From NCBI GenBank assembly GCA_038049695.1, contig CP142455.1:65544501-65608500 (forward strand): a DNA stretch of 64,000 nucleotides, written 5' to 3'. The position numbers were made by a program, and so were the translations under genes. The notes beneath the pieces were generated by a model. That model was not told the origin of the DNA. It saw nothing but the letters and a program-made list of their open reading frames with translations, and made no database searches. This document shows positions 14,479 to 60,772 of the stretch, in pieces (position 1 is the first letter of the stretch; each line of letters starts with the position of its first letter). This DNA comes from Cinnamomum chago. Taxonomy: Eukaryota; Streptophyta; Magnoliopsida; Laurales; Lauraceae.

Positions 14479-14487
14479 TATATAGTT

Positions 14488-14700
14488 GGGAAAATGACCG
14501 TACGGACGATCTTAAATTACGAATTTGCCTGAGACCAAACGAAAGAGTGAAATTTACCTAATAAATGATCGTACAGAAGGGTTGAACATTTTTTCCCTTT
14601 ATCCTGCGATATCCCAGGATGCTAGGATATCGAAGGATTCGATATCTCACGACACTAGGATATCGCACCGTTAGATATCCTACATATAAGCGATATCTCC
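14488..14700 (+). repeat. MULE left terminal inverted repeat
   Basis: The outer 17 bases are identical to the right end. Interrupted similarity follows (shared GATCGTACAG and TTATCCTGCGATAT motifs), then several GATATC palindromes between 14607 and 14697. The 5' region of the PMD-ULP1 gene lies just inside, so this end may also act as its promoter. Confidence 0.85.
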
Positions 14701-15789
14701 ACATTTTCACCATTCTCTTTCAACCTAGGTTAACCAAAGGACGAAGAAAACTCGGTAAAAAACCCTTTTTACTATGATCCTTTTTACTGTGATCATCTTC
14801 TTCGATCCTGCAATAGTTTTTCCTCCGATTTCTTCTCATCCTCTGTTTTCTTCTCATCGTCTTGCTATGGATATTGCAGGATCTAAGACTCCCACTCGAT
14901 TCTCCTTCACCAATCGCTGCAACGTAGTGTATCTTCAACAGTGTAGGGTTTTACTGTGTGAAATATACCCACTCGTCAAAAGATTAAGGTATGGGGAAGA
15001 AGTATTGTTTTTCCTTTATCTCTTGATTTGTTTTAGTCTTTTTTCTGGATTAGGGCTTGTTTTAAGGCTGGACATTTGGGTTTTTATTGTTAATTGGGGG
15101 TTGCATCGTGTGATGTTGCTACGAATCATATTTTTCTTCTACTATCTGATTATTGGAGATCCCTTGCAAAAAAAATCTGGTAGTGATTCTATTGTCTGCT
15201 TTTTTTACCATTTTTCCATGAAAAACTTTGTTGCTCTCCATGTTTTACTTTCAGGCTTAAAAGGTTGAACACTCACAAAATGATATATCAGCAGATTAAA
15301 AATTTTCAAGTACTGCAGGGTAGTTTGAATGCTACTTCATTCAAAATTAGTCTAATAAATTGGTAAACAACTCCTGGTAAACTTCATAGCACATGTTAAG
15401 AGATGACGTATCATGGAAGAATAAAGTTAGTTCGATGGCTTCATTTACCATGTGATTGTTAGAAAACTAAAGACCAGATTTAAAATTTAATTTGGATCTC
15501 TACTTTATATTTTTTACAAACTTTTGCAAGGGATATAGATAGTAAGCATATAACAGGAAAAAAAAACCAAGCGAATAAATTGTGTATTGTGGCTTTAACT
15601 ATTGAAATTATGTATAATGTAATAACAACAAACATACATCCAACTATTTGTGATTATAAGTACATGAAAATGACTATCACAGCACAACTATTCTCATGTC
15701 TGAGTTGATTATAATATATTATTTTATTTTTTTTACATTAGATTCTCTGTTAGATTGCATTTTATTTTTACTCAATTTTTAAATTGCAG

Positions 15790-18700
15790 ATGGAACAATT
15801 TCAACCCAGTCCTATTGATGCATCTGTATTGTCAGAACAAGAGAATCACGTATCAACATCAATATGGAATGGCAAGGAACCCGGTGTTTACCGATGTATT
15901 CCCGTTAACCCTAAGAGTGGATTTTGGAAATTAAATAATAGGCAATGCGACATTGTGAAAAGGACTGGCCTCCACCATCTATCGCAGATTTGCCACATGC
16001 GAATTGATCATGCTTTGATAAGTGCATTAACTGAAAGGTGGAGGCCAGAAACAAATACTTTTCATTTTTTGTCTAGAGAGGCTACTATTACACTTGAAGA
16101 TGTGGCATATATTTATGGCCTACCTATTGATGGTCCACCCAGTTATAGGTCGTACATACACGAAGAGACCCATCATTGAGGAAGTATGCAATTCACTCTT
16201 AGGAAAGGTGCCTAAACCCCCAAATATCGAGGGCGGACAGCTCAAACTGACGTGGTTTCATAAAAACTTCGTTGAGCCCCCAGAGAATGCATCTGAAGAG
16301 GATACCAATAGGTATACTAGGGCATATCTCTTTTGCCTTGTTTCAACCCAAATTTGTGGGTTTACGTCGGGGTCAAGGGGGCCTGCCTACCTTCTTGAAT
16401 TATTTGAATCCTTCCAAGTGTATGCATTGGCTCCTGCGTGCCTTGCAAATTTATACAAAACACTATCCAAGGCTACCCGAGTGAAAGATGGGATAAGAAC
16501 AATATGTGGGGCCTTCCAACTTCTTTAGGTAAATAACAACTACACGTATATTGCTTGGTTACAACACATATTGAAAATCCAAATTTATAAATTGATTATA
16601 TTTCGACAGATATGGGCATATTCTAGAATGAAAATTGGACGTCCAATCAAACAAAACATGGATTCTATCAAATTCGAGTTTCCATTTTTTTTAATGTGGG
16701 AAAAAAGATTGAGAAATCACTTTTGGTTGACTACTGTTGAAGAAGTTCGTCAACAACTCAATCAGCAAGGCATTGATCAGGTAAGTTCTTTCAGTTATCT
16801 CTATTTTCTTATCCATTTTTCCTCTTAAAATGGAGTAATGAAAAAATGGGTGCAGTTCGAGTGGCAGCCTTACCTCCAATTTGCTGAAGAGTTGATTGAA
16901 CACGTGTCAGAGGCAGATAGTTGTCTTTTTACAGCATGCATAGAAATGATCTTTTACTCAATTGTTGAACCTCATAATGTGGACCGTGTAATGAAGCAAT
17001 TTGGCCGGAGACAAATCCTACCTCCACCACTCCATCCAACTCCTGTGGAGAGATGAAAAAGGCTCAAGTGTTACATTCGACTGTAGAGTTAAGATGAAAC
17101 AAGAAGTAGAAGTATGGAAAAATAGAGTGTCATTAGTTATCGATGGAGAGTACGATGATTTGGTCGGTAGACATTCTGATAAGTACTTTGCTTGGTACCA
17201 CTGTATCACTAGAATGCGTGTCGGGCGGCCACCAGAAGGTAGGAGAAATCCACAATATGAACATGCAGTCCAACAAGTAATTATAGCTGCAATTTTAGCT
17301 GAAATAGTGGCGTAAGCAATAAATTTATGGTCTTTGATACATTACTTTTTTTTCTGTTTAAAGAACATGTTACTCTGTGTTATTGATGCATTACTCTATT
17401 TGGAACTAATAATCTATCATATTCTATCATCAGATGGAAATCTTCCTCAAACATATTGCGGCAACTGTAGATAGTGTGGATGAGAAATATGATTCATGGT
17501 TCTTATATAAAATTATGCAAACAATTCAACAAAAATGTTTGAAATTCTCGGTTGCCTGCACTGCTGGATTTGAAAATTTTAACTTGGAGGAATGTATTAG
17601 TAGCGGGTCGTATGAGAATTTCAATAAGGTTAGTTTTGATATATTAACAAATATTTCATTGTATACTACAAGTGTATTGAATTCCAATTTATGTTAAATT
17701 TTGTTGTTGAATATAATATGATTGTGAGATATCTATGGTGTGGAACAGGAAAATCAAGAGGAAGAAATGAGACAAGTGCAACCTGATGTCCACACACCCC
17801 AACCTTCCCCCTTTGCAAACCCAAGTCCCACACCCCATCCATCCCCATTCGTAACCACAAGCGCTACATCCCAACATTCTCCATCTGTAGTTCCAAGTCC
17901 AACACCACAACCACCCCGGTTCGTACCCTCCAGCTCCACACCATAACCTTCTCCATATGTGATTCCAAGTCTAACAACACAACCACCACCATTCGTACCT
18001 TCGAGCTCCACACACCAACCTAATCCATCCGTGGTTCGGAGTCCAACACCCCAAGCAATCCCTTTTGTAATCCACAGTCCCACACCCCATCCATCTCCAA
18101 TCGTTATCCCAAGTCCAACACACGAGGTATCTTCAATGGTAGGCAGAGTGAAAGGTAATCCTAGGAAAAGGATTATTCCTCCAAGGCTCTCTCCATATAT
18201 TTTGGCTCCAAGAAGCAAATGCCCATGGCCTAACCCACAATATTTGCTTACACCAGAAGAAGATAAGATCTTAGATAAGTTTTGGAAGTGTTATTATAAA
18301 AAGTATGTATGTATAATTTTTTTTAAAATTTACATTACTGGATTGGGCAATGCAAATATATAATGATTTTATATATGCAGCGTACCAGAATTGAATCAAA
18401 TTTGTTCAAGGGTTTCTGCTGAGAGTTTGCGTCAGTGCCTGCGTAGACATTGGGTCGATACCAATGTACGTTGCAATTATGGATAGTAATATTGTATTCA
18501 ATATTGATTTTTCCATGTAAATGATTAAATTGTGTCAGATGGATTGATTTTGGTGCATATGTCATAGATAATCAATTGCTGGTTTGATATTCTTGAGGCC
18601 AAGGTCCCAACAGCACATTTCTTTCCATGTTCACTAGGGGTATGGAATTTTTTTTATCCTTTATGACTTATAGTATGGAGTGTCACTCATAGTAACATTT

Positions 18701-19383
18701 TGTCTCTTTACCATGCAGCAGTGGGAACAGAACAATTTGACAGATTATTATTGTATTGCATTTGGGAAAGAGGGACTTTGAAAGTTTAATGACTATGAAA
18801 TGCTATTTTTTCCAATCTGGCATCAATCACATTTTTTCCTCCTAGTTGGATATCCAAAAAGAGAAAAATGGGAGTTTTATGACAGTTTGGGTAATGATGT
18901 TGACTGGAAATATACTCGTCATTTTGTAAGTGTATCTCTGCTTAAATATATTTATTATATATTTTAGAGTATCACGTCCTTGTGCATTGACATATGTAAT
19001 CTCATGTGTACAGGTTTTATTCATAAGCAGTTGTTTCTCCCAACTTGGTTGGGACGGTCCTGCATCTTGGCCAATTATACCTTATGAATGTTCTAAGCTA
19101 AGATAATATGTGAGTTTAAGTTGCAAATGTTAGATGTTTGCATTATTCAATGATGGGATACATGTTCTCACATGTGAACATTTGTGCAGGGATGATTGTG
19201 GAGTATTTATGATGGCATTTGCAGAGCATCTATTACTTGGCCGACCCATGCAGTTCACATAGAGCAATATGTGGTTTTATAGACAAAAGATCGTACATGA
19301 CATATATTAATTACAAGCAATGGGAAAATAGTGGTTTCATCGAATCTACTGCAGAGAGTGGAGGGACAGATGATGTGGAGTAG
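15790..19383 (+). pseudogene. Plant mobile domain-ULP1 cysteine protease fusion (MULE-borne)
   Basis: Translation starts at ATG 15790, directly after a splice acceptor (TTGCAG), so a 5'-UTR intron is likely. The first exons (15790-16528, 16610-16780, 16856 to about 17311) encode a plant mobile domain (PF10536 type; motifs LHHLSQICHMRIDHALISAL, ATITLEDVAYIYGLPIDGPP). A short exon follows (17434-17628), then a proline-rich repeat exon (17749-18302) and small exons encoding a C48/ULP1 peptidase. Its His region (WHQSHFFLLVGYP), Asp region (KWEFYDSLG) and Cys region (DDCGVFMMAFAEH) are all visible. Breaks: a +1 shift near 16137, a TAG replacing the last codon of exon 1, another shift near 17040, and stops at about 17944, 18780, 19105 and 19261. 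The known fold would be a SUMO/ubiquitin-like deconjugating protease; the role inside a transposon is not established. Confidence 0.85.
17785..18130 (+). repeat. Proline-rich coding repeat linker
   Basis: About eight imperfect copies of a 13-15 residue unit, consensus near PSPTPHPSPFV, occupy the exon between the mobile domain and the protease. One copy contains an in-frame TAA at 17944. A low-complexity, extended linker of this type would separate the two domains. The DNA repeats are imperfect and in frame, indicating expansion while the gene was still coding. Confidence 0.85.
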
Positions 19384-20007
19384 TTATAGGGATGTATGAA
19401 GTTTTTGTATATGATAGGTTCGGTATGATGTGATTGTACAGTTCAATTTTAATATCAATCATCGTTATTTTGTTTAACCTACAACAATGTAAAGAAAAGT
19501 GTATAGGTTTTTGGTATACATGTTTTTGTAGTGTTTAACCTACAGCAATGTAAAGAACTTTCTCATATAGTTTTTTTTTTTTTTTGGATCTATACATGTT
19601 TTTGGAGTGTTTTTGTTCCATTTTATTTTTGTTTAATCAAAATTAGGTATGAAGCCGACATATATTAGTCATTACTATATCCAATAATATCTTTAAATTA
19701 TGGGTTCAACCAGTGGTGTGATACATATGAAAAAAGAAAATTTTTTCATCATACTATCAAAATAGTTTAATAAAAAAAATTCTTACAGTGATAATGTCTG
19801 ATTTTAATAAAAGAATGATTTTTTATTTCAATATTTTTAATTTTATAATTTAAATTAATTTTATTTTTCAATAATACTAATTTGCCAAATCAAATTTTTT
19901 TATTTTTTTTTATTTTTTTTCTGAAGTTTGCGTTTCTTCTGGACTCTCTGCGATGCATTTTAGAAAAAAATACAGAGAGTGGTCTCGCTAAAGCAACCAT
20001 TTTCTTG
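19384..20007. other. Gap between the two convergent MULE genes
   Basis: AT-rich sequence with T-rich and A-rich runs, probably the 3' untranslated regions of the PMD-ULP1 gene and the transposase gene. No additional coding sequence was recognised. Confidence 0.55.
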
Positions 20008-22752
20008 CTATAGCGAGCATACGCAAGACAGAGCCCTAGGTTGTATTCTTTTTTGGTCGGCGGGTTGTCTTCTTGCATGGGGTGGTAACACCCACACGTT
20101 GCTTCTTTCCTCCCTTTGTCTTATATCTCGTGTTGCATGCAAAACATAACTGTATGTTTGTTGATATGTGTCCCTAGAGAACCAATGTTGACAAAAGTCG
20201 TATGGGTCGAGACCCCTGGCCTTGATGACAGCTAAGGCATGAGAACATGGGATTCCAAGTACATCCCACTTCCGACAAGTACAGGAATGTTTGTCAAGCA
20301 AAACGACGTCTACATACTCACCAGGTGAATGAACTTGAAATTCCCATTGACTGACTGCCTGTACTCCTAATCTACGTGAATGTTCCAACTCTTTGTTTAA
20401 GATTTTTTCAGTATAATGGGTCATTCTTGTTTCCAACAATAGTGATTTCAAGCGTCGATCTTCAGAAAACTCCAACAGTTTGGTGCATATCGCTTCAACT
20501 TGTTTCGCTATAGGAAACTCCCTCACTTCCTTCAACAAAGCATTCGTACATTTCGCAATGTTCTGAGTGAGCATATCATAACGCCAGCCCCTTACAAATG
20601 CATTTGCCCACTGCTCTTTTGGGATGTTGTCAATGTACTTGTATGCTTCCTCTGAAACAATCCTCATATCAGCCATCTCTTTATCATACTCGCATGCTCT
20701 GTACGTTCTTCCCGCTCTCTAGAACTTAGCCACGATAACTTTATCCTTGAATCTTTCGACTATATTTTGTGCAACATGCCGTACGCAATGACAATGATAT
20801 ACAGTTGGGAACCTATTAGAAACAACTTGCACAAGCCCTTTCTGCCGATCAGAGACAATGGTCAAATTCTGTGTGGGACGAAATGCAATAGAAATTGCAG
20901 CAAGGAACCACTCCCAAGAATCTTGTCGCTCAATTTCAGTTATGGCAAATGCGAGCGGAAAGAGTTTGCGATCTCCATCATAAGTCATGGCTGTGAGTAA
21001 TACTCCAGGATATTTTCCACGAAGATGGGCACCATCAACATCAATTAATGGTCTTAGGGATGAACGAAATGATTGTGCGCTTGACCCAAATGCCCAAAAA
21101 AATCTTAAGAATGAATCATCATCTTCCTTAATCAGCACCGTTATGCTACCAGGATTTGTGCTATTCAGCTCAAGGCAATAGTGGGGTAAAATACTGAAGG
21201 ACTCCTCGTAAGAACCACGTATATCAAGCATCGCAATTTCTTTTGCTTTCCACACCTTCCTGTAACTAATTACGACACCAAATTTCATTGAAAGTCAGTA
21301 ATAATTTCCTTCGGAGTGTACGACGGATGGTGTCAAAGCCGCTCCTTGATCCACTTAGCGACTAAAATCGATGTAGCTTGCCTATGCCCCATCCCCATCG
21401 CTGGCTTTGAACAACAGTGACTGTTGTTAGATGTCCTCACTTGAAATTATGGTCCAGAAGCCACAATCGAAGCGTAAATACACCACGGACATGTAGGATC
21501 AGCACATCTTGCAGTGACTTCTGTCTTGCTCGTTTGCAGAGGCTTAGTAGCAAAGTTCTTGTGCATTGCAAATCTCACCAATGTTTCTCTGAATGAATCA
21601 CGATCTGGAAATTGTCTTCCTTTCCACATGTTGTGTTGGGAATTCTCAACATGCTCATCATCAGTGTGCTCTAAATCAGGAATCAAAGTGTCAACAATAT
21701 TATTGTCTTGTATTGCATTAGATTTCTCTCCATTAACTTCTGCGACACATGCTTCGTTTTCTTGTATAATAAAATGCTGGGATTCACATAGTGGGGGAGT
21801 AGTACAGGCCACGGGATTGTTTAAATCGAATTGCATAGGTTCAATGCCCGGACTGTTTAAATCGAACTGAATAGGTTCAGTGCCAGACAAATTAAACCTG
21901 CATAGTGGATGATCAATCATAAATTCATTGATGGAAAAAAAAAATTCAGAAACTAAATTTCAAAAGATTTAGTGCAAACCTATTGGATTTAGTAATTGGA
22001 AAAAGACTGACTTCATCCTCGAGGACTATTGATGGGTTTATATCAGCTTCATTCACGAACAATCTCTTCTTTACACCATTACCCCTCGTTGCCTTCTCAT
22101 TATCTTGTTCATCCTCAAGGACTATTGATGGGTTTATATCAACTTCATTCATGAACATTCTCTTTCTTACGCCATTACTTCTCGTTACCTTCTCATCGTC
22201 TTGTTCATCCTCAAAAACTCTTGATGGCACTGTATTAGCTTCATCCATGAGCAATCTCTTCCTTACGCAAATACTTCCCGTTACCTTCTCATCATCTTGG
22301 TCTAATTGAGATATTGTACACCTACTATGCATCCAAATTAACTTAGGTAATAAAAATTATAATAATAGATATCAAGCAGTAATGTGATTTATTCCATACC
22401 TTAAACTTGGTGGTTGATGGTTTGTGGCAACACCATCACTTCTATGGATATACAGAAAGATAGGATCAACTCCATATCGAAATAATCTGAACATTCTCAT
22501 GAGATCGTCATCACTTCTTAGGCCTACTAATGTAAAGTTATGGCCTGTATGATATATGTATTGCATGTAAGGGTACCCATTTCTCATCTCCCAAATGGTT
22601 TCTGCTGTAACTTTTTCAATAAGTGAATTGTAAGTTATGTTGCTATAGACAAAGATAGGCTTCTGCTCTCCACCGTTATATATTGGATGTGAGCGATTCA
22701 CATCTAGCTCTCCATCAAAGTGCAGTATAAGACACAAATCAATATCTGACAT
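20008..22752 (-). pseudogene. MuDR-type MULE transposase
   Basis: The likely start is the Met at 22752 (MSDIDLCLILHFDGEL), opening a PB1-like N-terminal domain. The exon ends near 22398 and the next exon begins near 22325. Then come three tandem 32-residue repeats containing VRKR/VKKR (about 22300-21990), a MuDR N-terminal DNA-binding domain (WKGRQFPDRDSFRETLVRFA, CADPTCPWCIYA), the MULE catalytic domain (LIDVDGAHLRGKYPG, LTIVSDRQKGL, HCHCVRHVAQN) and a SWIM zinc finger (HSCTCRKWDVLGIPCSHALA). Damage: TAA after SGP near 21448, TGA near 21337, a one-base deletion just upstream of 21288, and TAG near 20718 in place of Trp. The catalytic Asp residues and the SWIM ligands are retained. The domain order is that of MuDR/MURA transposases; this copy cannot make a full protein. 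Confidence 0.88.
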
Positions 22753-23339
22753 CCTAATTAAAACAATAAAAATAAAATATATTTTATTAATAAAAATTGC
22801 ATGGGTTGGAAATATGCAGTAATCAAAATGCCACAATATTAGTACCTATAAAGGACTCAGAATACCATATTTTCTAGTGAGTAACAAATTCATACATTTT
22901 ATTATAACATAGAAATCCAAAAAAAAAAAAAAAAGTTTCACCAATGGACTATTAAATAGGTTTATGGTGAAAGATACAAGATGGGGGAGCAGTATATTAA
23001 TAAAAAAACACATCAATTGCAAGAAGTTGAACAAAATAATGCATTTCATGGAGAGATCTAAATCTTAATGAGTGATTTACAATTTACATAAAAAAAACCA
23101 AAGCAGAAAAAAAGTTTATCACTACTACATTTATGGGATGTTTTTTTAAGGCATTCAGAAATTATATGGTCACACGTACCTGCCGTGTGAATAAAATGTA
23201 TGAAGTACTGATGAAAGAAGATGGAATGGTAATATACTATTGGAACCCACAAGCCAAAACGGAGATGGAAATGGAGCTCTCTACAGTTTTTGGAAACGAA
23301 GGTCTGTAGATGATGTAAAAAATGAGTTATATATCGGAG

Positions 23340-23593
23340 TAGGTAACGGTGCGATATCCTACGAGCATAGGATATCAAATTGTGCGATATCCTACAAGTC
23401 TAGGATATCGAACGGTGCGATATCCCACTGGCCTAGGATATCGAACCGTGGAATATCCTACATCGCAGGATAAGGGTAAAACTGTCCGAATTTGGACTTC
23501 CTTTCCTGTACGATCTGCTGGTGGGTAATTTCTACTTTTCCATCTTGTCTTGGGTAATGTGGGATTTTGAGACGTTCGTACGGTCATTTTCCC
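23340..23593 (-). repeat. MULE right terminal inverted repeat with palindrome array
   Basis: The outer end is the inverse of the left end. Internal to it (23346-23475) are four tandem units of about 32 bp, each containing GCGATATCC then AGGATATCG around a variable centre. They resemble transposase-binding subterminal repeats and could form cruciforms. Confidence 0.87.
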
Positions 23594-25720
23594 TATATAG
23601 TTATATATATGAGAAATGTTAATGTACAAGCTTCCTTTATGGTCTTACGGTACAAGCCACCTCATGAGGCCACTTACCAGTCCATCTGAGTGGACAATCT
23701 AAACCCACCACTCTTATTTACACAATCCCACCGAATTTTGATAGATGCAAATTGAGTGAACTGTTGGATGGAAGGTCAATTTTATTATTTTACTAGTGGA
23801 GCCCTGCACCTGCAATGCACGTGTAAGGAACATACTCTTTCAGTATGATAATCTAAAAAAATAAATTCATTGAAAAACTCAATATTAACTATCCCAATGG
23901 AGAATGACCAGTTTACATATAGTTCATTTTTTTGGCAAATTAAGTAATTTACAATCACTCATTGTTCTTATGAAATTTAGTAAAAGCTTCAATAGAAAAA
24001 AGTAATAACAAGATATATGGAAGAGGATACTAATTAAAAGAAGAAGAAGTTGAAAACCAACATTTTCTAGCCATACATGATTAGGCAAAAACTCACGGAT
24101 TTCAATATAGATCAATAGTCCGGCCTATTTCCCATTAAAATTTGTCTAAAACCTAGCGCCAAATACATACCAAATTCATGTTGAGAAGCACCGAATGACA
24201 CTAATACCAATACAAAGAAATTTGAATATCATGGAAAGAAAACAAGATTGATATTTCAAGATGAGAGCCAGAGCAACAACTTAAAAAGCTTTCTTGAGTT
24301 AAGATGACACCGCTACCAAATTTTGAACCATGTACATTTGTGGCACTTCTGTTAGCTTTTTATGTATCATAAACCAGTTCTGTTGCATTCTAATTTTGTA
24401 GTAAGTGAATCTTTGAAACAAATATTATAATTTGAAGCAAGAGAACCAATTACAAAGAGATCTTTAGCCATGCACTCTAAGGGTGGGCACAACTACTTCC
24501 TTCAAACTTCCTAAGAAAATTTAATGGAAAATCCATTATCCTAGCATTATAGTAATGTGGTTGCAATGTTGGACAGGAATCAAGTCCAAGAGTAATACTG
24601 GTTCGACCTAAGATGATGCCTTGGATGAAGCAAGCAAAATCATAAAGAAAGACAATTAGCACCCTCAAACACAGTTTAGCACGTAGAATGATAATGAAGA
24701 ATGCATGTTGCCAGAATTGCCTAAAACAAAAACAAAAAAACAAAAAAAAGGGCCCTAAAGCAATCACTTCAAATCAACATAAGAGGGTGGATCTAAAAAC
24801 ATGAGTTGGCATATCATACTGATGGGTTCCATTACATCATACTCATAAAAACTTGAAAGGAAAAATAAAATGCCTTATCATAATCCAAGAAGTAATAAGA
24901 CAAGCCATTAGTCACTTGCATTGGATGTTGGTTTGATATATAGCAATAAAATTCAAAAGAAAACCAACTTGCATGGAATGAAGAAATAAAAAAAAGGCTT
25001 ACATATCACAAAAAACTTTCATGACACCGAGATTATCCAGCTACTAAGAAAATGAAGCATCTAAATGACCTTAAGCCTCTCTACAGCATCTCCATATCTT
25101 TGGCTAGTGCACCCACACATCAATGAAATATCTTCCTCATTTCAACCCAATAATGTCACCCAAGTCCTCATCACTAAGCATGAAAACACCATGCTTTCTT
25201 AGTAAAGGGGATATATGTGTGTGTGTTATAGTATTTCTTTTTCTGATCTGACACAAGCATACTCTCAAAGCACATAAAATATTTTTCTATATTTTTTAGA
25301 GTGACTATTTGGTTAGATCTACTTGTGCATAGTGTTTTGTATCGATTGCGGATTTCGACTACACCCTAACATATTTGCTAGCATACATAGGAATTTATAG
25401 TGAAACAAGCTTTGCTGAAAGATTATTAAAGAAGTGAGGGGTGAGAAACAAGAGGTTATGGATGCAAAAGGGACCTTGACCATCGTGGGATTTGATTTTC
25501 AGGGTGATGGATGAGCATTCATCTCTCATTTTTCCTCAAATCAATTTCCATTAAAAGAGAGGTTATTTGATTGTCATTTTTTAATATTCATGTATGATTT
25601 TACATTTTAACCACTAATGAAAATCTGAAGCCCTATAACTCTTAGGAACTGCAGGAACGATTTTCTGTCATTCCTTAAAAAGTTTGATGCACGAAAATGT
25701 GTAACATGTTACAATTATTT

Positions 25721-32550: not shown

Positions 32551-32639
32551 AAAAGATGATGTTACTCTGTTCAATTGATATTTACATTCACAAAATTTAC
32601 ATTCTCGGATATAGAAATTCGAAAATAATTCAAGAACAA

Positions 32640-33142
32640 GAATGGTTTTGGACAATTTACTTTTGGCTCAACTTTTTGCTGCATCACATTAATCACTTCA
32701 ATTTGCTGGTCGGTTACCCATATGAGGCAGTGTGGGAATTTTACAATAGCTCAACAAGTGATCATTATTCTCTAACTACTTGCAAAGAATTTGTAAGTAT
32801 GCATTGTACTATTTTTATATAAATTATTTTCTAACTACTTGCAAACTAACATACTACTTTGATACTCCTCAGGTTGGTTGGCTAACCTCAAAATTTACGG
32901 TTTATGGTTGGAATGATCCTTTCGTCTGGACCTTCATAGAAAAGATGGACACCCCCCACCAAGACAATGGGAACGACTGTGGGGTCTTCGCATGTGCTTT
33001 CGCCGAACACTGCATTCTCAGAAAACCACTCAAGTTCACACAAGCTGACATTCCATTTTATCGGAGTAAAATAGTTTTGGAGATATTCAAAAGGACCCGG
33101 GTGCTAAACTCCTATAAGTTGGATTTAAGTGCTTTAGATTAA
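32640..33142 (+). pseudogene. ULP1-like (C48) peptidase C-terminal fragment
   Basis: Two exons (about 32640-32792 and 32873-33142) join in phase across a GT-AG intron and end at a TAA. The first holds the His region (HINHFNLLVGYP) and the position of the catalytic Asp, which reads Asn here (WEFYNSS). The second holds the Gln region (TPHQDNG) and the nucleophile region NDCGVFACAFAEHCILRKPL. It is related in plan to the protease in the MULE at 14488-23593 but clearly diverged. The N-terminal part of the protein is not visible, so it is a fragment or an incomplete gene. The two exons themselves are free of stops. Confidence 0.75.
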
Positions 33143-42999: not shown

Positions 43000-43546
43000 G
43001 TATCCTCACCCACTATTTATCACTACTTATTTTTATCTCATGAAACTCACCCATTACTTATCACTACCCATTTTTATCTCGTGGAACCATTCACTTCCAC
43101 TCTCCTCTTTCCAAAGTTTTACCCTTTTTAAAAAAAACTCAATTTATATCCCACCTCTTTTATATCTTACTACCCCAATTCTTTTATTACCATTTTATAC
43201 CACTTAGCTCTTTTAACCTTAGAAATAAGATTAGCAGGTGATTATTATTTGAAACTTTTTGTTAGACAGTAACGAATTTATGAGTTAATTATTTTTTATT
43301 TTTCTAGTGTTTTTATGTTAAATTCATTTTTTTACAATTATTTAATCTTTATATATATAAATATAAATATATATTCTTATTCCTTAAAGCTGAAGGTTGG
43401 TTGCAATGTCTTTTGGGAGAAAAGGCTCTAATCTCATATTTCCTTGAGCCACATCAACAATCATAACCATATCAGCATTGGATCCTCTCACTAACACCTC
43501 TTCATACCTTTGACTGAGACACCTCTACCGAACTACCTCTTCAAAA
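43000..43546. other. AT-rich spacer, nothing recognised
   Basis: Contains two near-copies of a TTATCACTAC...TTTTTATCTC phrase (43018-43080) and AT-rich sequence leading into the LINE. No coding sequence was identified. Confidence 0.45.
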
Positions 43547-44680
43547 ATGCCTCTTAATGTTTCACGTCACTTTAAGGCCTCACTAACACTTACCTTCCTA
43601 AGAAACGCCTCCTACATGTTTCACATATACATAAGACCTAGGGATGTAACTCGAGAGAACACAATGTATAGTGAGGCGATTGCAAATTTAAAGCCTCCTA
43701 CACGTCATTCTTATGATGTGGGCCAAAGTATTCTTGATGAAGGCCCTTGGTTTGTCCATGGTCGTCCCTTGATTTTGAGAAGATGGTTGAAAGAGATCAC
43801 AATGTATAATGAGAATCTAGAAACCATTCCAGTATGGGTTTGTCTCCCTAATTTGAACTTCTGCTTTAGGACAAATTATGCCTTAAGTAAAATTGCGTAT
43901 GTTATTGGAAATCCAATCTGTATGGACCATGCTACTGCGGCTGGTACTCATTATGCTTTTGCTCGAATCTATGTTGAAGTGGATGTTGATGCTGAGTTCC
44001 CATCTGAATTGCGCATGAAATATAAAAATAAAACTATCACTCAAAGAATTGAGTATGCTTGGAAACCAAACCCTCGTAAATCATGCAGAATCTTTAATCA
44101 TGGAGATAAATTATTCCCTCTAAAGGCTGATAAAAATGGCCCAAAGAAAGTTTGGGTACCAAAGAAGAATCAAACTGCAGTGCCGCAATCTGAATTGCCC
44201 ACCAATGAGCAGCCTGTAACAAATGCAAACAACAAGCAGCACGCCCTTCATGTGGATGACCAGCAGCATAGTGTTCTCGTGGAGGAATGGAATGTCGTCA
44301 AAGGGAAGAAGGGTGCAGATCGATCCTCATCTCCTCCACAAAAATCAGTGAGTAGCCCTACACATAAGACGACCTTAGGTATTTCTTTAAATAAGGAACC
44401 CAATAGATTCCTTAGTCTTTCAAACCTTGATGGTGAATCTAATGTTTCGGCAGAAGAAATTGCTACCACTACAGCTCTAGTTTACAACAGTACTACAGCA
44501 GGATTAAAACAAACTAGTTTAGGTGACCAGCAAAAGCCATTTTCATCCATTCACCAACTAGATAAAAGTTTCCTTGCAAGATTGCCAAGCACAAGTGCCA
44601 AACAAAAGCCAGGTTCTACTGGGCCCATTATAAAGAAAAGGCCAATCCTAAAATCGTTCCCCATGACAGTCATAGTATAG
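43547..44680 (+). pseudogene. LINE ORF1 protein (DUF4283) with degenerate zinc knuckle
   Basis: A 377-codon open frame. The DUF4283 part is at residues about 50-165 (PWFVHGRPLILRRWLKE, ETIPVWVCLPNLN, ALSKIAYVIGNP). The following zinc-knuckle position reads KSCRIFNHGDKL, which lacks the last ligands. The C-terminal half is low-complexity, as in other plant LINE ORF1 proteins, which bind the element RNA. The listed start may not be the original one. It ends at a TAG that falls within the endonuclease start (see ORF2), so ORF1 and ORF2 share one frame here. Confidence 0.8.
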
Positions 44681-47600
44681 AATGTGAGAGGTCTTAACAG
44701 ACCCTCAATGCAATTAGAAATCATGAATAAAATTCAAAAATTGAAGCTTGCGTTAGTTGTTTTGTTAGAGACAAAGGTAAAACAGTCCTCTTATACTTAC
44801 ATTGCTAATTCAATCCTTCCACATGGATGGAGAGAAACTTCCAATATTGAGGACGGGTCAACTGCTAGAATTTGGATGATGTGGGACACAAGGGTGATTC
44901 ATGTTTCATGCTCATCTAGGGCTGCTCAATGTATTCATTGTGATGTTCAATTCAGGAATATGGATTTCTTATAATCCGTCTGCTACGGATTTAATAATTA
45001 CATGCAAAGACGAGAACTATGGAATTCTATTGGTGAGAAATAGAAAAGTAGCGTGTTACCATGGATTGTTGTAGGTGACTTCAATACGATCCAATGGAAT
45101 CATGAAAAATCAGGGGGTGCAATCCCAAGGGCTGCTGGACTCATTGAGTTTAATGACTATATTCAAGAAGCAGGTCCGATGGAACTCAGTTTAACAGGGC
45201 CGTCATTCACATGGTCAAATTCTAGCATTGGTGATTCACGAATTGAATGTAAACTAGATAGAGTTCTAGTTAATGCAGTATTCTTTCAAACTAGCCCATT
45301 TACAGGAGAAGTTCCACTGCCAGGTATCTCTGATCACTCTCCGCTTTTACTATCCTTAAATCATAATTTTCACTTCAAAGCTCCATTCATATATTATAAT
45401 TATTGAGCCAAAATCCCGGGTTTTTTCCAAATAGTGGAAGACTCTTGGGATGCTAATATCTATAGCACTCCACTTTATATGGTGGTTCGTAAGCTCTCAA
45501 TTGTGAAGAAGAACCTTATTGAATGGAAAGAATTACATTCATCTCTTCCAACAAAGTTATCAGAGGCAGCTCTAAAGTTAGAAAATTTGCAGCGGTATTT
45601 GGTGGATGTCCAGGAAATATGGATATCCAAAAACAAGAGCGGACAGCAAGCTTTGAACTTGATCACCTATTAAAGGCCGAGGAAACTATGTACAAGCAGC
45701 GTTCTAGGGACCTGGCTGTAAACTTGGGGGATAGTAACATCAAGTATTTTTATCGTCTTATGAGGAAAAGGCAAACTCAATCTTATATATCTCAAATTGC
45801 AGATGCGGAAAGAAACATTTATACTGAGCCTTCAGGTATTGCTGCTACCTTTGTGTCTCACTTCCAAAGGATCCTGGCCCCTAAGGTTGATAACCAATGT
45901 CCTGATCTATCTCATGTTGCCCCTCATGGCTATGTCACTGAAGAGGATGCCTTAAACCTTATGAAACCAATTTCAAATTCTGAAATTGAAGAGGTCATTA
46001 AGGCTGCAAATCCTAATAAAGCCCCTGGGCCTGATGGATTCAATGCACACTTCTTTAAGGTGTGCTGGCCTATTATGGGAAATGATATTTGTACGAGTAT
46101 CAAAGATTTCTTCAAGCATGGATCCATGTTAAAACAACTTAAAAACACTTCTATTGTGTTGGTATCAAAGAGTGAAAATGCAAAAACACTAGATAAATTT
46201 CGGCCTATTGCTTTGACAAATGAATTATACAAAATTATTAGTCGAATTCTGGTGAACAGACTCAAACTCACAATGGCAACAATTGTGGGCCAATGTAATC
46301 AGCTTTTGTTCCTGGTAGAAATATCACAGATAACTTCCTCCTTGCTCAAGATCTTATTCATAATTTTCATCGGCATCAAGGGATTCCTTAAACGTGCATC
46401 AAGATTGACCTTGCTAAAGCTTATGATAGTGTCAGTTGGGATTTCTTGAAGGCTGCTCTGAAGTGTTTAAAGTTCCCGGACCATATTAGCAAGTAAATCA
46501 TGGAATGTGTATCAGGTGCGAAATTCTAGTCTTGGTTGACGGGAATCCAGAGGGTTTCTTTCAAGGAGCGCGAATCTGAGACAGGGTTGCACGTTGTCAT
46601 CATTCCTTTTTGCCCTAGTTATGGAATTTTTCTCTTTAATGATGAATCAATATGCTTCGTCCAATTTGATTCCTTCACCATTTGTGAAAAGGGGAGTCAA
46701 CATTTCTCATTTAATGTTTGCTGATGACTTGATTGTATTTAGCAAGGCTTCTCCATTTGCAGCAGCAAACCTCAGAAACTCTCTTCATCATTTTAAAGAT
46801 TTCACTGGGCTTGGGGTTAACTGGTTAAAGAGTGCTATTCTTTTTGCAAATTGTAAAGAGGAAGATCAAGCTGTTATATCTTCAATTCTAAATATTCAAT
46901 AGGCAAAGTTTCCTATCAGGTACTTGGGAGTTCCTTTATCCTCAAAAAAGATAAACTTCAATGACTGTCAAGCTCTTTTGGCCAAAGTCTAACAACGTCT
47001 ATCTAGGTGGAAAGCCAAGGTATTATCCTATGTAGGTAGACTGGAGCTAATTAAATCTACTATAGTTTCGTTTCATCTCTTTTGGGCGACTGTCTTCAAG
47101 CTACATTGCATGCTCTAGATTGCCAGGTTAGAGATTTCTTTTGGAATTGCCGGTCTTCTCATTATATTCATCCTATAGCTTGAGATTCCATATGCCAGCC
47201 CATTACTTTGGGAGGACTGGGTATTCGATCCATTTATGGAGTTGCCAAAGTTGCATTATTAAGGCAATTGCGGAATGTTGTCACTAATAAAAAAAACTTG
47301 CTGAAATATTTGGGTTAATGCAAGATGTCTGCATGGGTGTTCCCTTTGGGATGCTCCTCTCATGGACTCTGCCTCGTGGGGATGGAAAGGCATCTTAGCA
47401 CTTCGCCACATTGCCTTACCTCATATTAAATTCCTAATTGGGAATGGTCACCTAACACATTTTTGGACTGATCCTTGGCTCAATGGTGGTCGATTAAAAG
47501 ACCATTATGATGCTCGACCAATTTATGCTATGAGACTTGGTAATGACATTAAGGTTAGTTACTTTATTCAAAATGAAGGTTGGGATTTTCCTACCCCAAT

Positions 47601-48710
47601 TTCGAATAACATGATGGATATTTTTCAAACAATATCTAATGAAATCCAACCATGGGTTAATTTTGATGATGAGATTGTGTGGACTTTCGAAGATCATGGG
47701 AAATTTACTCTAAAATCCTCTTACAATTTTATATGTAATTTCCCTAGTCAGCAACTTTAGTGGCCTACTGTAATCTGGTTTAAAGGTTGTATAAAAAAAC
47801 ATTCAGTTTGTGTGTGGATGGTTCTACGAAACAGACTCAAAACCAAGGACTTCCTTCTTCAAAGGAATGTTGATTGTGACTCATGTTGTGTACTATGTGA
47901 CTGCACATGGGAGACAGCTTCTCATATCTCATGATTTATTGCCCTTATTCTCAAGCAATTTTGAATTTATTGCTTTATAAATTGAACTTGGTAGCAATCA
48001 ACTATAATATTGTGCTTGAATTGTTGGAATCAGTGACCTCTCGGCTAGCTCAACAAGGAGAAGGAGCCTTAACCCTTGGGAAACTACTCTTCAATGCCTA
48101 TGTTTGGCATATTTGGGCAAAAAGAAATAGCAGAATTTTCAAGAATATATCAAGGACACGTGAATCAGTTATGCAAATTTTTTTTCAAGTAGTGACCACC
48201 ATAATTCTCTATCTTGGTATCAGCTTACCAAATAGAATTCACTGCCATTGGAATGTTCCACCACATGTCCACGCTACTCATCCTCATCTGGTTGTTGAAA
48301 GGCGCAAAGGGTGGGATTATCAATAGTTTCAACTAACTAGGTATTAGTTGGAATTTTGTGGAACAACATACATCAACCGCAGCATGGCCGAATGGTGCAG
48401 ATGTTTGATTATTATGAAGGTGTCTTTCATCTTTTGCAACTCATCCCAAATAATGTTCAATCCATCACCATTGAGACCGAAATATCTCTCTAGCATATTC
48501 TTTTAGACCCATCCCAATCGAATTGGTTTGAGCATTTCCAAGCTAGGAAACTACGTGTAGTTGTCAAGAGCTTCCAGCAGGTGCATTTCTCATTATTACA
48601 TCCAAAGACTGTCAGGATCAGCAAATCCATTAGTAGAAATATTGGAACACTTCCAATTAATATTGGTAACATTGAGCAGCAGTATAATTTTATCCGAGAT
48701 TAGGGATTGA
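44681..48710 (+). pseudogene. LINE ORF2: endonuclease, reverse transcriptase, zf-RVT, RNase H-like
   Basis: Domains on the plus strand, in shifting frames: APE-type endonuclease (NVRGLNRPS at 44681; VVGDFNTIQ near 45070; ISDHSPLLL near 45330); reverse transcriptase (NKAPGPDGFNAHFF near 46015; FRPIALTNELYKIISRI near 46200; catalytic FADDLIVFSK near 46718; RYLGVPLSS near 46920); zf-RVT (VLRNRLKTKDFLLQR near 47823; CVLCDCTWETASH near 47890); and an RNase H-like tail (NWFEHFQARKLRV near 48520). Stops and frameshifts occur throughout (for example near 44975, 45033, 45406, 46902 and 46990). In an active element this protein nicks the target and copies the RNA; this copy cannot. Confidence 0.85.
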
Positions 48711-57101: not shown

Positions 57102-58017
57102 ATGGACAAGTATGACGTTATCCGCATTAAGTTTAATTGGCAAAACTATATGGCTTGGTCCTTCCATCTGAAGAACTTCGTAGAAGGACGGGGGGCTATT
57201 TGGCTATCTGGATGGAACAGTAACAAAACCTCTTACTCCAAGTACCATGGACTCCAAAGTCTTGGCCACCTGGTCTAAGGAAAATCCCAAAGTGATTACT
57301 TGGATTCTGAACTCTATTGATTCCTCCCTTGCCGTGGCTCTTCAAGCCTATGCTACCGCAGTAGATATGTGGGCTCACCTCAAGAAAATCTACCATCAAA
57401 CTAACAAAGCCCGGAAATTTCACTTGGATAGTGAAATTGCTAAATTTACTCAAGGGGATAGATCCGTGCAAGAATATTTTAATGGCTTCCTCACCTTATA
57501 GACCGAACGGGATTCCATGTTGATTTAGACCGTCTCTTCTGGCTTTCTCTCCGAGGCTCTTAAACTCCAAGAGGAAACTTACATGAGCCAGCTCCTTATA
57601 AAACTACGACCAGACTTTGAATCGGTTCGGTCTATCCTCATGAATAGAGAACTTTCGGCTAATCTTGATACCTGCTTTCAAGAAGTCCTTCGCGAAGAAC
57701 TTCGTCTCACCTCACAACGTGCCATTCTTGAAGAACTGAAGGCCTTCCTCGCACCCCTTTCGGCTGACTCTGCTCTTCTAGCAACCCCTAATCCGAAGCT
57801 CACTCAATGCTATAAATGCAAAGGCTTTGGTCATATTGCCAAGAATTGTCGCAAGAAGTTGGTTTGCCGATACTGCAAGCGATCTGGTCATCTTATTGAT
57901 GACTGCCGCAGCCTTCAGAGAAGGAATGAGACGCAACCTAAGAAGCCTCCCTCCAATCTGCCAAGACAGAATATTCCTTCCGCATTCCAGGCTCAAGCAC
58001 CATCATCTGATGCATGA
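57102..58017 (+). pseudogene. Copia Gag
   Basis: Starts MDKYDVIRIKFNWQNYMAWS, typical of copia Gag. It shifts frame near 57210, continues as IDSSLAVALQAYATAVDMWA and KFHLDSEIAKFTQGDRSVQE, and has stops at about 57501 and 57528. The C-terminal part carries two adjacent CCHC zinc knuckles (CYKCKGFGHIAKNC and CRYCKRSGHLIDDC), which bind RNA. It ends at TGA 58017. In an intact element Gag forms the particle that holds the RNA. Confidence 0.88.
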
Positions 58018-58189
58018 AGCACTTCATCCGGGGCTGTCTCAATGACTCTTGCTCGGATTCAAGAACTGATCCAGAGCACAGTTATCTCTGCATATGCGTC
58101 TATGGGTTTCTCTGGTGGTTAGTATCAAACTCATTCTCATATAGCATCTCCTGCTTTTCATTCCTCTACATCTCTTTCTTCTCCGATCA

Positions 58190-60772
58190 CCTCTTCCACA
58201 TGGTTTTTAGATTCATGAGCCTCAAATCACATGATATTTGTAGAACATAGCTTTACAGATTCCCATCCTTACTTTGGAAAAGAGAAAATAACCACTGTTA
58301 ATGGTGATCAACTACTCATTTCTGGAGTTGGTACCATTACTTTATCTAGTATCTCTTGCCAGTCCATCACCCTTCCCAATGTTTACTTTGTTCCCAAATT
58401 ATCAACCAATCTACTTTTTGTAGGACAACTTATAGATGAGGGCTATTTTGTTCACTTTTCTTCCTTTGGTTGTGTTATATAGGGGCGACAAACTGGGAAG
58501 GTGATCGCGACGGGGAGTAAACATGGGCACTTGTTTTTGCTAGACATTGGACATCATTCATTCTTTGCTTCTTCTTTCGATAATTTCAATAAATTGTGGA
58601 CTGTTTGGCATAAACGTCTTGGTCACGTGAACAATGCCCATTTGATTTTCTTATTTAAGATTGGTTGTTTGGATTCTACTTTTGATAATAAAATGATGTC
58701 TTCTTTATCTCAATCTAAGTGTGAAACTTGTTGCTTAAGTAAGAGTAACATTTTTCCTTTTTCTGTTCATAATTCTCGTGCATTGGCATCATTTGACATT
58801 ATCCATTCTGATGTTTGGAGAATTGCTCCTACCTTGAGTAGGACGGGATTTAAGTACTATGCGACCTTTATCGATGACCATTCTCGTTATACTTGGATTT
58901 ACTTTATGCGTTTGAAATTTGAAGTCTTTTTCAAAAATTTTATAGCATGGTCCAAATCCAATTTCAGAAAGCCATGAAGGTTCTTAGGTTAGATTCTGGT
59001 GGAGAATACATGTCTCATGAATTCTCTGCCTTTCTTTCTGATAAAGGCATTCTTCACCAAAAATCTTGTCCACACACTCCTCAGCAAAATGAGATTGCGG
59101 AAAGAAAGAACAGACATATTCTTGAAACTGTTCGCACTCTTTTAATTGCATTCTTAGTCCCTTCCAACTTTTGGTGTGATGCTGCACAGACTGCTGTGTA
59201 TCTTATCAACCGTCTTCATATCACTGTTCTAGGAAAGACTACTCCTTACGGAGTTCTCTTTGGTCATACACCTTCATACTCTCACTTACGTGTCTTTGGT
59301 TGCTTGTGTTTTGTTCATCTTCCTCCTACTGAGTGCACCAAGTTATTACCACAGGTTGCCAAATGCATCTTTCTTGGGCTTGGCTATAGTAATGAACACA
59401 AAGGTTTTTTTTATGTTATGATTAGTTTGAGAAACGCATGCGCATATCTCGTAATGTGATCTTCTTGGAACATATTCCTTTCTTTTCCTTATGCTTGGAT
59501 CATCATCCTATTGTTGTGTCCTATTTGCCACAATTCTAGGAATCTGCTTCTCCATCATCTCTTCCCAAAGTCTATGTCCGGCGTAACACGGTGCCTCCTA
59601 TAGTGGCCCCCTCTCCTAATTCTCTCCCAGTGCCGCCTATTGAACTAGTAGGTAATAATGCTCCCTCTGATAGTATCTCTCTGTGACGCTCTAGTCGCCT
59701 TTTCGTTGCCCCTAACCGTTATGGATTTCCTGCTCTCTTTTCCTCTCTAGATAGTGCTCCTATACCCACCTCATATTCATAGGCCTCAAAGATCGCTTAT
59801 TGGCAAGATGCTATGAATGAGGAATTGCTCGCTCTTGAAGCAAACCAGACATGAGACTTGGTACCGACTCCTGAACGAGCCTCTGTGATTGGCAGTAAAT
59901 GGATATATTGTATAAAAGTTAACTTTGATGGGAGTCTTGATCGCTACAAAGCCAGATTGGTTGCGTAGGGTTACAAGCAGGAGTATGGCATTGACTATGA
60001 GGAGACATTTGCACCAGTGGCTAAAATGACCACATTTGCACATAGTACGGAGGATGGCCCTCCCCTTGATGATCCCTCTATTTTTTGGCGGATAGTTGGT
60101 AGTTTGCTCTACTTAACTATGACTCGGCTTGATATTTCTCATGCAATTCATACGGTTAGCTAGTTTGTGAGCAATCCTCACAAATCCCACCTTGCTGCTG
60201 CTTTGCGCATACTCCGCTATGTTAAAAGCACTCTAACTCATGGTCTCTTCTACCCTTTTGGTACTTCTCTGCGATTATCAGCTTATGCAGATGCTGACTG
60301 GGCCGGTTGCCCTGATTCTCGGCGATCTACCACTTGCTGGTGTATGTTTCTTGGCGACTCTCTGATTTCGTGGAAGTGCAAGAAGCAAACCACGGTGTCA
60401 AAGTCTTCTGCTGAGGCTGAATATCAGGCAATGTCGTCCGCAAGTGCTGAAACCATTTGGCTCCGTCGTCTTCTCTGTGAATTTGGTTTGATTGTTGGTA
60501 GTTCTACACCTCTTCATGGGGACAATACCAGTGCTACCGGAATTACTAACAATCCAGTCTTTCATGAACAGACGAAGCACATTGAGATTGATTGTCACTT
60601 CATCCGTCAACATGTTGTCACTGAGAAGATAACCTTGCCTCATATCTCTACTCATGACAAGTTGGCGGATTTCTTCACCAAAGCACTTCCCAAACCACGC
60701 CATCATGATCTCACTGGCAAATTGCTGTTTTCTGCATTACCACATCAATTTGAGGGGGATTGTAGAAGATAG
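58190..60772 (+). pseudogene. Copia Pol: protease, integrase, truncated RT, RNase H
   Basis: Protease: WFLDS at about 58204 is followed by TGA, where the active-site Gly of the D-[ST]-G triad is expected. Gag-pre-integrase: WHKRLGHVNN and CETCCLSK (HHCC zinc site). Integrase: acidic residues in FDIIHSDVW, ATFIDDHSRYTW and NEIAERKNRH, with a stop near 58977. Reverse transcriptase: the N-terminal part (ARLVA, stop, GYKQEYGIDYEETFAPVAK) ends near 60030 and jumps straight to the DPSIFWRIVGSLLYLT segment, so the palm with the YVDD motif is missing. RNase H: LSAYADADWAGCPDSRRSTT, SSAEAEYQAMSSA and HDKLADFFTKALP look intact. The family order PR-IN-RT-RH is that of Ty1/copia. Confidence 0.9.
60752..60759 (+). 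other. Polypurine tract
   Basis: GAGGGGGA directly upstream of the 3' LTR start, the primer site for plus-strand DNA synthesis. Confidence 0.8.

What the first reader, a model, noticed from the sequence alone, without database searches (positions are those of the whole stretch)
14488..23593. MULE with full ends that carries both a transposase and a plant mobile domain-ULP1 protease fusion
Directly seen: identical inverted 17-base ends, a perfect 9-bp target duplication, a MuDR transposase relic on one strand and, on the other, a mobile-domain gene running through a proline-rich linker into a C48 protease. ULP1-bearing MULEs are known in plants, and mobile domains occur in transposons; the two fused in one gene inside one element with a linked transposase is an unusual, complete layout. 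Inference: the element may use a SUMO/ubiquitin-like deconjugating activity together with a silencing- or chromatin-related domain to favour its own expression.
Basis: partly seen in the sequence, partly recalled or inferred. Interest (0 to 1): 0.82.

Follow-up and report, generated by a model that had tools for sequence, protein, structure and literature searches.

The report
Plant jumping gene encoding protease fusion
The stretch is a worn-out copy of a plant DNA transposon whose intact relatives in the same genome carry, besides the jumping enzyme, one long gene that joins a silencing-related domain to a SUMO-type protease, which may help the transposon escape being switched off.

Summary
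Window 14488-23593 is a Mutator-like element: 17 identical terminal bases (20 of 21), a perfect 9-bp duplication, a MURA-type transposase relic on the minus strand, and a plant mobile domain (PMD) plus C48 (Ulp1) protease on the plus strand. This copy is neither complete nor working: frames are broken and a third gene is missing. The layout is not a one-off: in this 1.06-Gb genome 27 of the 32 best-scoring PMD places (window included) have C48 downstream on the same strand. An intact 11.8-kb relative on contig C11 has TIRs, a 9-bp TSD, a convergent transposase, a Transposase_32 gene and a PMD-linker-C48 gene reading as 915 aa through 10 exons with in-phase GT-AG introns; part of another copy is 99.94% identical at a different site. 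PMD is under strong, C48 under weaker selection. Three full elements carry subterminal GATATC arrays. Best mechanism (inferred): an element-encoded factor against silencing, comparable to VANC/KIU of VANDAL elements. No expression or activity was tested. PMD-protease fusions and Ulp1 MULEs were each known; their union in an intact autonomous MULE looks like a new variant.

The parts
14479..14487 (.). left copy of the 9-bp target-site duplication, TATATAGTT
   Evidence: identical to 23594-23602
14488..14508 (+). left terminal inverted repeat
   Evidence: 20 of 21 bases complementary to 23573-23593, first 17 identical; 40 places in the genome match the first 233 bases wholly or in part at 72-100%
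14608..14697 (.). left subterminal array: 6 GATATC sites spaced 18/15/18/15/18
   Evidence: letter-shuffled ends hold on average 0.22, at most 3, for both ends together
15790..17276 (+). PMD part of the PMD-C48 gene (exons 15790-16528, 16610-16780, 16856-17276), frames broken in this copy
   Evidence: Pfam PMD E 1.6e-67; exon limits by alignment to L039
17434..18302 (+). linker exons 17434-17628 and 17749-18302: conserved segment, 12-residue Pro-rich repeats (36-bp repeats) with a stop, then a conserved basic segment before C48
   Evidence: (family D1)
18381..19350 (+). C48 (Ulp1-like) protease exons 18381-18465, 18568-18639, 18719-18925, 19014-19109, 19190 to about 19350, with stops
   Evidence: Pfam C48 E 3.5e-6; exon limits by alignment to L039; tblastn of the L039 protein ends at 19350
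20041..20047 (.). approximate point where the Transposase_32 gene of relatives is missing
   Evidence: between neighbouring matches the C11 element has about 3.5 kb where the window has 0.7 kb; Transposase_32 matches L035 and L037 but not the window
20047..21923 (-). main exon of the transposase relic: MuDR DNA-binding, MULE and SWIM domains
   Evidence: 86% and 77% amino-acid identity, two pieces, to the intact transposase exon of the C11 element
22372..22845 (-). 5' exon of the transposase relic with a PB1-like domain
   Evidence: PB1 E 0.0011, under the Pfam cut-off; E 7.8e-4, also under it, in the intact relative
23353..23442 (.). right subterminal array: 6 GATATC sites spaced 18/15/18/15/18
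23573..23593 (-). right terminal inverted repeat
   Evidence: 40 places in the genome match 23340-23593 wholly or in part at 83-100%
23594..23602 (.). right copy of the target-site duplication

Best explanation
The locus is a decayed, internally deleted copy of an autonomous, recently mobile MULE family. An intact member encodes (1) a MURA-type transposase, (2) a PMD-linker-C48 fusion protein and (3) a Transposase_32 protein, with transposase and fusion gene convergent. Shown: element limits, domain content, one continuous spliced reading frame in DNA, selection on PMD and (more weakly) C48, recent copying, regular GATATC arrays just inside both ends. Inferred: the fusion protein acts for its own element in the nucleus as a factor against silencing. 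The PMD part would engage the MAIN/MAIL-type silencing machinery or the element's chromatin, the C48 part (Cys, His and Gln kept, Asn mostly in place of Asp) would remove SUMO or a like modifier from silencing or transcription proteins there, and the GATATC arrays would be the landing sites of this protein or of the transposase.
For: Ends and TSD. 17 left/right end pairs in the right order and none in a wrong order, out of 40 left and 40 right places. PMD+C48 on one strand within 8 kb in 27 of the 32 best PMD places (43 of all 150), no pair in another arrangement. Intact C11 element with TIR 17 of 20 and TSD ATAAATTTA, 915-aa PMD-C48 CDS with 9 GT-AG introns in phase, Pfam PMD 6.7e-73, C48 1.9e-8, Transposase_32 4.2e-28, MULE 7.1e-19. 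The fetched part of a second copy is 99.94% identical over 5140 bp with another left flank. Selection, L039 against four window-family copies: PMD pN/pS 0.22-0.24 in frame against 1.14-1.47 in shifted frames; C48 0.47-0.63 against 0.58-0.92. GATATC arrays in the three full elements examined. SENP2 alignment places His, Gln and Cys.
Against: No expression, binding or protease data. The catalytic Asp is Asn in the three intact copies and in three other families, so activity is uncertain. Selection on C48 is weak in the comparison with dead copies (for L036 no better than shifted frames) and the linker is close to neutral; within the L039 group the PMD ratio (0.86) is no better than shifted frames. 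The GATATC motif was picked after seeing the ends, and the arrays could serve only the transposase. No relative of PMD was found by sequence among solved structures. Everything comes from one genome.
Confidence: 0.4

Rival explanations
1. Anatomy as above, but the fusion protein is an accessory of transposition: it helps the transposase assemble at the subterminal arrays or removes SUMO from the transposase, with no role against silencing.
For: Arrays lie just inside the TIRs on both sides, where transposase sites are expected (the expectation is general knowledge); the gene sits opposite the transposase in the intact element and in the L013 and C8 families.
Against: PMD relatives in Arabidopsis (MAIN, MAIL1) are linked to silencing rather than DNA transactions (PMC5418596, passages). 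Nothing tested here separates the two readings directly.
Confidence: 0.3
2. PMD and C48 are two neighbouring genes, the second starting at the ATG that opens exon 4.
For: In the window family exon 4 begins with ATG right after the acceptor, and PMD read unspliced stops 8 codons (L039) or 12 codons (window) after the exon-3 donor. In L017 the frame upstream of exon 4 is open and holds a Met.
Against: In L020, L040 and L017 the same exon starts with Val, not Met; in L020 and L040 an in-frame stop lies directly upstream of it. A phase-0 donor at the end of PMD exon 3 is kept in the window family, L013, L014, L020 and L040 (no clear one read in L017 or L019). The whole chain is in phase in L039, L042 and L045.
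Confidence: 0.1
3. The C48 part is a passive passenger: a captured host fragment without benefit to the element.
For: MULEs capture gene fragments often (PMC2528002, passages); Asn mostly replaces the catalytic Asp; the window and L035-L037 copies are all broken.
Against: C48 stays with PMD in families (L040, L019, L014) whose exon-1 PMD sequences are 48-62% identical to L039; PMDs linked to C48 or to the pre-C48 segment form one group in the tree (92/97); His, Cys and mostly Gln are kept; L039 against L045 has 6 synonymous changes per 111 sites and 3 non-synonymous per 462 in C48.
Confidence: 0.12

Closest known systems
KAONASHI/KIU MULEs and VANDAL VANC (Arabidopsis)
   Same: MULE with a transposase and a further gene ending in a Ulp1 protease, C48 in reverse orientation to the transposase; short DNA motifs repeated in non-coding parts of the element (PMC13317346, PMC2528002, PMC5735166, passages).
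   Different: Those are non-TIR elements, and VANC carries DUF1985; here there are TIRs and the partner domain is PMD. No DUF1985 match was found in this genome at E 0.001 or better, but that search had no positive control.
Ulp1-bearing MULEs of grapevine, melon and rice
   Same: C48 downstream of the transposase gene, in both orientations, in TIR and non-TIR elements, 9-bp TSD (PMC2528002, passages).
   Different: The words 'mobile domain' do not occur in the main text of the grapevine paper.
MULE-captured PMD-C in grasses and Amborella (Ikeda et al. 2017, PMC5418596, passages)
   Same: PMD inside a MULE; anti-silencing role proposed there.
   Different: There PMD occurs as a fusion with the transposase; here it is fused to C48 on the other strand, with an intact autonomous member.
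Genic PMD fused to protease, kinase or phosphatase domains (Nicolau et al. 2020, PMC7156037, introduction passage)
   Same: PMD joined to a protease.
   Different: Described as genic; the passages seen name neither C48 nor a transposon for the protease fusion. Here the fusion is encoded within TIR-bounded elements.

Membership tests
Mutator superfamily (MULE) | MULE/MURA transposase domains | tested here: met
   PF10551 1.4e-18, PF03108 5.9e-9, PF04434 8.4e-11; intact exon in the C11 relative
Mutator superfamily (MULE) | 9-bp target-site duplication | tested here: met
   window TATATAGTT, C8 TATTTATTT, C11 ATAAATTTA
Mutator superfamily (MULE) | terminal inverted repeats | tested here: met
   20 of 21 terminal bases; weaker similarity, about 73-76%, across the subterminal region
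VANDAL / KIU (VANC-type anti-silencing MULE) | DUF1985-containing VANC protein | tested here: not met
   no PF09331 hit in the proteins; genome search empty but without positive control
VANDAL / KIU (VANC-type anti-silencing MULE) | no terminal inverted repeats | tested here: not met
   TIRs present
VANDAL / KIU (VANC-type anti-silencing MULE) | repeated short motif in non-coding element DNA | tested here: met
   GATATC arrays; the motif differs from VANC's, and binding by the protein was not tested
VANDAL / KIU (VANC-type anti-silencing MULE) | protein causes sequence-specific loss of methylation | not testable with these tools
   needs transgenic plants and bisulfite sequencing
Peptidase C48 (Ulp1/SENP) | catalytic His, Asp, Gln, Cys | tested here: inconclusive
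   His, Gln, Cys aligned to SENP2; Asp aligned to Asn in L039. Asn also in L014, L019, L020, L035, L036, L040, L042-L045; Asp in the window and L037
Plant mobile domain proteins, clade PMD-C | placement with MAIN/MAIL sequences | not tested
   no reference PMD-A/B/C sequences in hand; only an own-genome tree was built
PMD-transposase fusions of MULEs (Ikeda et al. 2017) | PMD fused to the transposase | tested here: not met
   PMD and transposase on opposite strands

The most novel reading that the evidence does not exclude
PMD-C48 is a sequence-guided anti-silencing factor that arose apart from VANC: it reads the GATATC arrays at its own element's ends and uses a Cys-His-Asn Ulp1-like protease to strip SUMO or a like modifier from the host's silencing machinery, so that a PMD related to the host's MAIN/MAIL silencing proteins is turned against them.
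Probability: 0.2. Interest if true: 0.82.

Novelty: new variant of a known kind. Interest (0 to 1): 0.55.

Why it matters
What PMDs do in transposons, and why so many MULEs keep a Ulp1 protease, are open questions. A recently copied element with an intact PMD-C48 gene, an open transposase exon and a sharp candidate cis motif makes both testable in one system, and offers a second case, besides VANDAL/VANC, for asking whether DNA transposons evolve anti-silencing factors together with their own target repeats.

Tried and rejected
Rejected: chance pairing of PMD and C48 (no pair in any other arrangement); two separate genes (not fully excluded); a window copy that still works. Selection measured only among window-family copies was uninformative: pN/pS 0.53-0.63, no better than shifted frames, because those copies decay neutrally; among the four L039-group sequences compared the PMD ratio was 0.86, again no better than shifted frames (0.58, 1.17), while C48 gave 0.34 against 0.66 and 1.05. 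No TIR/TSD pair was found for the stretches around L013, L014 and L017, and only a weak one (13 of 20) in L019, so their element limits are unknown. L013 itself showed no C48; two relatives of its family (C1:114.49 Mb, C3:17.23 Mb) lie near C48 hits by position. A comparison of PMD with DUF1985 profiles could not be done: the genome search for PF09331 returned nothing. Relatives were sought once each in viral contigs (117-aa PMD piece) and genome contigs (transposase exon) without result, as expected for a plant element. Two papers tried by DOI (the WRKY-GCM1/PMD study and the eudicot VANC study, both DOIs and topics recalled) are not held and were not used as evidence.
Full report
Observation. 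The window element is real. Its ends are 20 of 21 bases complementary with the first 17 identical, and the 9-bp duplication TATATAGTT flanks it exactly. Read through with X at stops and frame breaks, the plus strand matches PMD over the whole profile (E 1.6e-67) and Peptidase_C48 (E 3.5e-6); the minus strand carries MuDR DNA-binding, MULE and SWIM domains and a sub-threshold PB1. The PMD-C48 frames of this copy are broken in several places and the transposase frame is interrupted.

Family in the same genome. The genome is held as 1,061,006,199 bases in 14 contigs; no species name is given. The left 233 bases gave 44 matches and the right 254 bases 45; I used the 40 best of each (72-100% and 83-100% identity) and left out the last four and five, weak partial matches overlapping or beside listed ones. 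Of these, 17 left/right pairs stand in the correct order on one strand within 20 kb, nine of 5.9-16.1 kb and eight of 1.1-2.2 kb, and none in another arrangement. Ten left-end stretches were returned (L025 is the window itself): seven, the window included, follow the window over its first 1.6-1.8 kb (L034 with a break), and three (L030, L031, L033) jump inward as internally deleted forms. Four further stretches (L035-L038) match the window at about 94% in their longest aligned blocks; L035, L036 and L037 hold PMD, linker and C48 in the same order, while L038 lacks the C48 part. L035 and L037 also hold a gene that the window lacks.

Linkage of PMD and C48. A search with the window's PMD exon 1 scored 150 of 2299 candidate places; one with its C48 gave 169 matches, of which I used the 150 listed (these are exon hits, so one gene can count more than once). 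Of the 150 PMD places 43 have a C48 hit downstream on the same strand within 8 kb; of the 32 best-scoring ones (80% identity or more, the window included) it is 27; 71 of the 150 C48 hits have a PMD upstream; no pair stands in any other arrangement within 8 kb. So 107 of 150 PMD places show no C48 by this query. Many of them are other families, whose C48 it detects poorly: L040, L020 and L019, for instance, do hold C48 by tblastn; the rest were not looked at.

Intact relative. Stretches L039+L041 on C11 hold an 11.8-kb element with ends 17 of 20 complementary and the duplication ATAAATTTA. Its PMD-C48 gene reads as 915 residues through ten exons; all nine introns are GT-AG and in phase. Pfam finds PMD (6.7e-73) and C48 (1.9e-8) in that one protein, Transposase_32 (4.2e-28) in the next gene, and MuDR DBD, MULE and SWIM in a 655-aa open transposase exon on the other strand; the upstream transposase exons were read as open frames but not joined. 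The fetched part of copy L042 on C4 is 99.94% identical over 5140 bp and the likeness starts exactly at the TIR, with a different flank: recent movement. L042 and L045 are also open throughout the PMD-C48 CDS (to the end of the aligned C48 part), L043 and L044 are not, and the window, L035, L036 and L037 are all broken.

One gene or two. In the window family exon 4 opens with ATG, which would allow a separate second gene. But in L020, L040 and L017 the homologous exon opens with Val after the acceptor, with an in-frame stop immediately upstream in L020 and L040 (in L017 the upstream frame is open and holds a Met, so it says less), and a phase-0 donor closes PMD exon 3 in the window family, L013, L014, L020 and L040. 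A segment just before C48 is recognisably shared by the window family, L013, L014, L017, L019, L020 and L040. This favours one spliced gene; RNA was not available.

Selection. L039 against the window and L035-L037: PMD pN/pS 0.22-0.24 in frame and 1.14-1.47 in shifted frames; linker 0.62-0.70 against 0.83-1.11; C48 0.47-0.63 against 0.58-0.92, which overlap. For L039 against the window the Fisher p-values on rounded counts are 1.6e-17 (PMD), 0.04 (linker) and 0.001 (C48); for C48 in L039 against L045, 0.002; for PMD in that pair, 0.38, not significant. Against my reading: within the L039 group the pooled PMD ratio (0.86) does not differ from shifted frames, while C48 (0.34 against 0.66 and 1.05) does. 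The dead copies add neutral changes.

Protease. The C48 part aligns with SENP2 (1tgz, E 1.1e-8): His, the CPxQ Gln and the DCG Cys are in place, and the catalytic Asp is Asn. Asn stands there in L014, L019, L035, L036, L039, L042-L045, in L020 and L040, and in a second C48 relic of the window at 32.6 kb; the window element and L037 have Asp. Papain-type proteases use Asn at this place (recalled), so activity is possible but unproven.

Second family and ends. A C8 element of 13.2 kb (TSD TATTTATTT, ends 17 of 20) has PMD-C48 on one strand and the transposase on the other, as in the window; no Transposase_32 match was found in its stretch L020 or L021. GATATC is enriched just inside the ends of the three full elements examined: window 6+6 with spacing 18/15, C11 4+8 with the same spacing on the right, C8 3+4, mostly in a TTGCGATATC context, with another spacing; letter-shuffled ends hold on average 0.2 and at most 3 (5000 shuffles; the motif was chosen after seeing the ends). 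[quoted passage not shown] Which protein reads GATATC is unknown.

Origin. In an own-genome tree of 17 rows (PMD exon-1 region; L003 gave no row; three rows are one family) the nine PMDs linked to C48 (seven) or only to the pre-C48 segment (L013, L017) form one group (92/97, under the 95 mark), apart from PMDs of a FAR1/Hop-like MULE type, from the L004 family and from two stand-alone genes. One origin of the pairing is consistent with this, not shown.

What is known. Ulp1 in MULEs: PMC2528002 and the review PMC13317346 (passages). PMD in MULEs as transposase fusion, with an anti-silencing idea: PMC5418596 (passages). Genic PMD fused to a protease: PMC7156037 (introduction passage). In the held library no paper contains both 'plant mobile domain' and 'ulp1', nor 'plant mobile domain', 'C48' and 'Mutator-like', nor 'PMD', 'Peptidase C48' and 'transposable element'; most subscription papers and Repbase are not in that library, so prior description cannot be excluded.

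Verdict. A decayed copy of a recently mobile, three-gene MULE family with a PMD-C48 fusion: real, recurrent, with a constrained PMD and a less clearly constrained C48, mechanism unproven.

Noticed in passing
window 32598-33088 (+): Second C48 relic of another family (40-47% identity to the L039 C48, YNS and DCGVF kept); no PMD match beside it in the window.
   Followed up: partly
L012, L016, L018 (C11, C12, C1 of G000): Another MULE type: FAR1/Hop-like transposase (MULE domain E 4.5e-26 in L012; like frames in L016 and L018 by reading) followed by an OTU-like segment (only E 0.056 to OTUD1 in the PDB, no Pfam hit), on the strand opposite to a PMD gene. If the OTU reading holds, PMD sits beside two kinds of ubiquitin-type protease in one genome.
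   Followed up: partly
L012:2129-3481 (+): This PMD protein has a weak, sub-threshold match to DUF1985, the domain of VANC (E 0.0012); a distant kinship of PMD and VANC is worth a profile test.
   Followed up: partly
L013:5978-7051 (+) and L039: Transposase_32 (PF20167) gene beside the PMD gene in two distant families (E 2.7e-25 and 4.2e-28), which suggests that this pairing is older than the window family; it was not found in L020 or L021 of the C8 element.
   Followed up: partly
L025-L034 and end pairs: Eight of the 17 end pairs span only 1.1-2.2 kb, as expected of non-autonomous derivatives; three fetched left ends jump to internal sequence.
   Followed up: partly
L035, L036, L037 and window, exon 8 of PMD-C48: Within one family the third catalytic place of C48 varies: Asn in L035 and L036, Asp in L037 and the window.
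   Followed up: no
window 43514-48323 and 57184-60769 (+): By eye from open frames, relics of a LINE and of a Copia retrotransposon; not searched.
   Followed up: no
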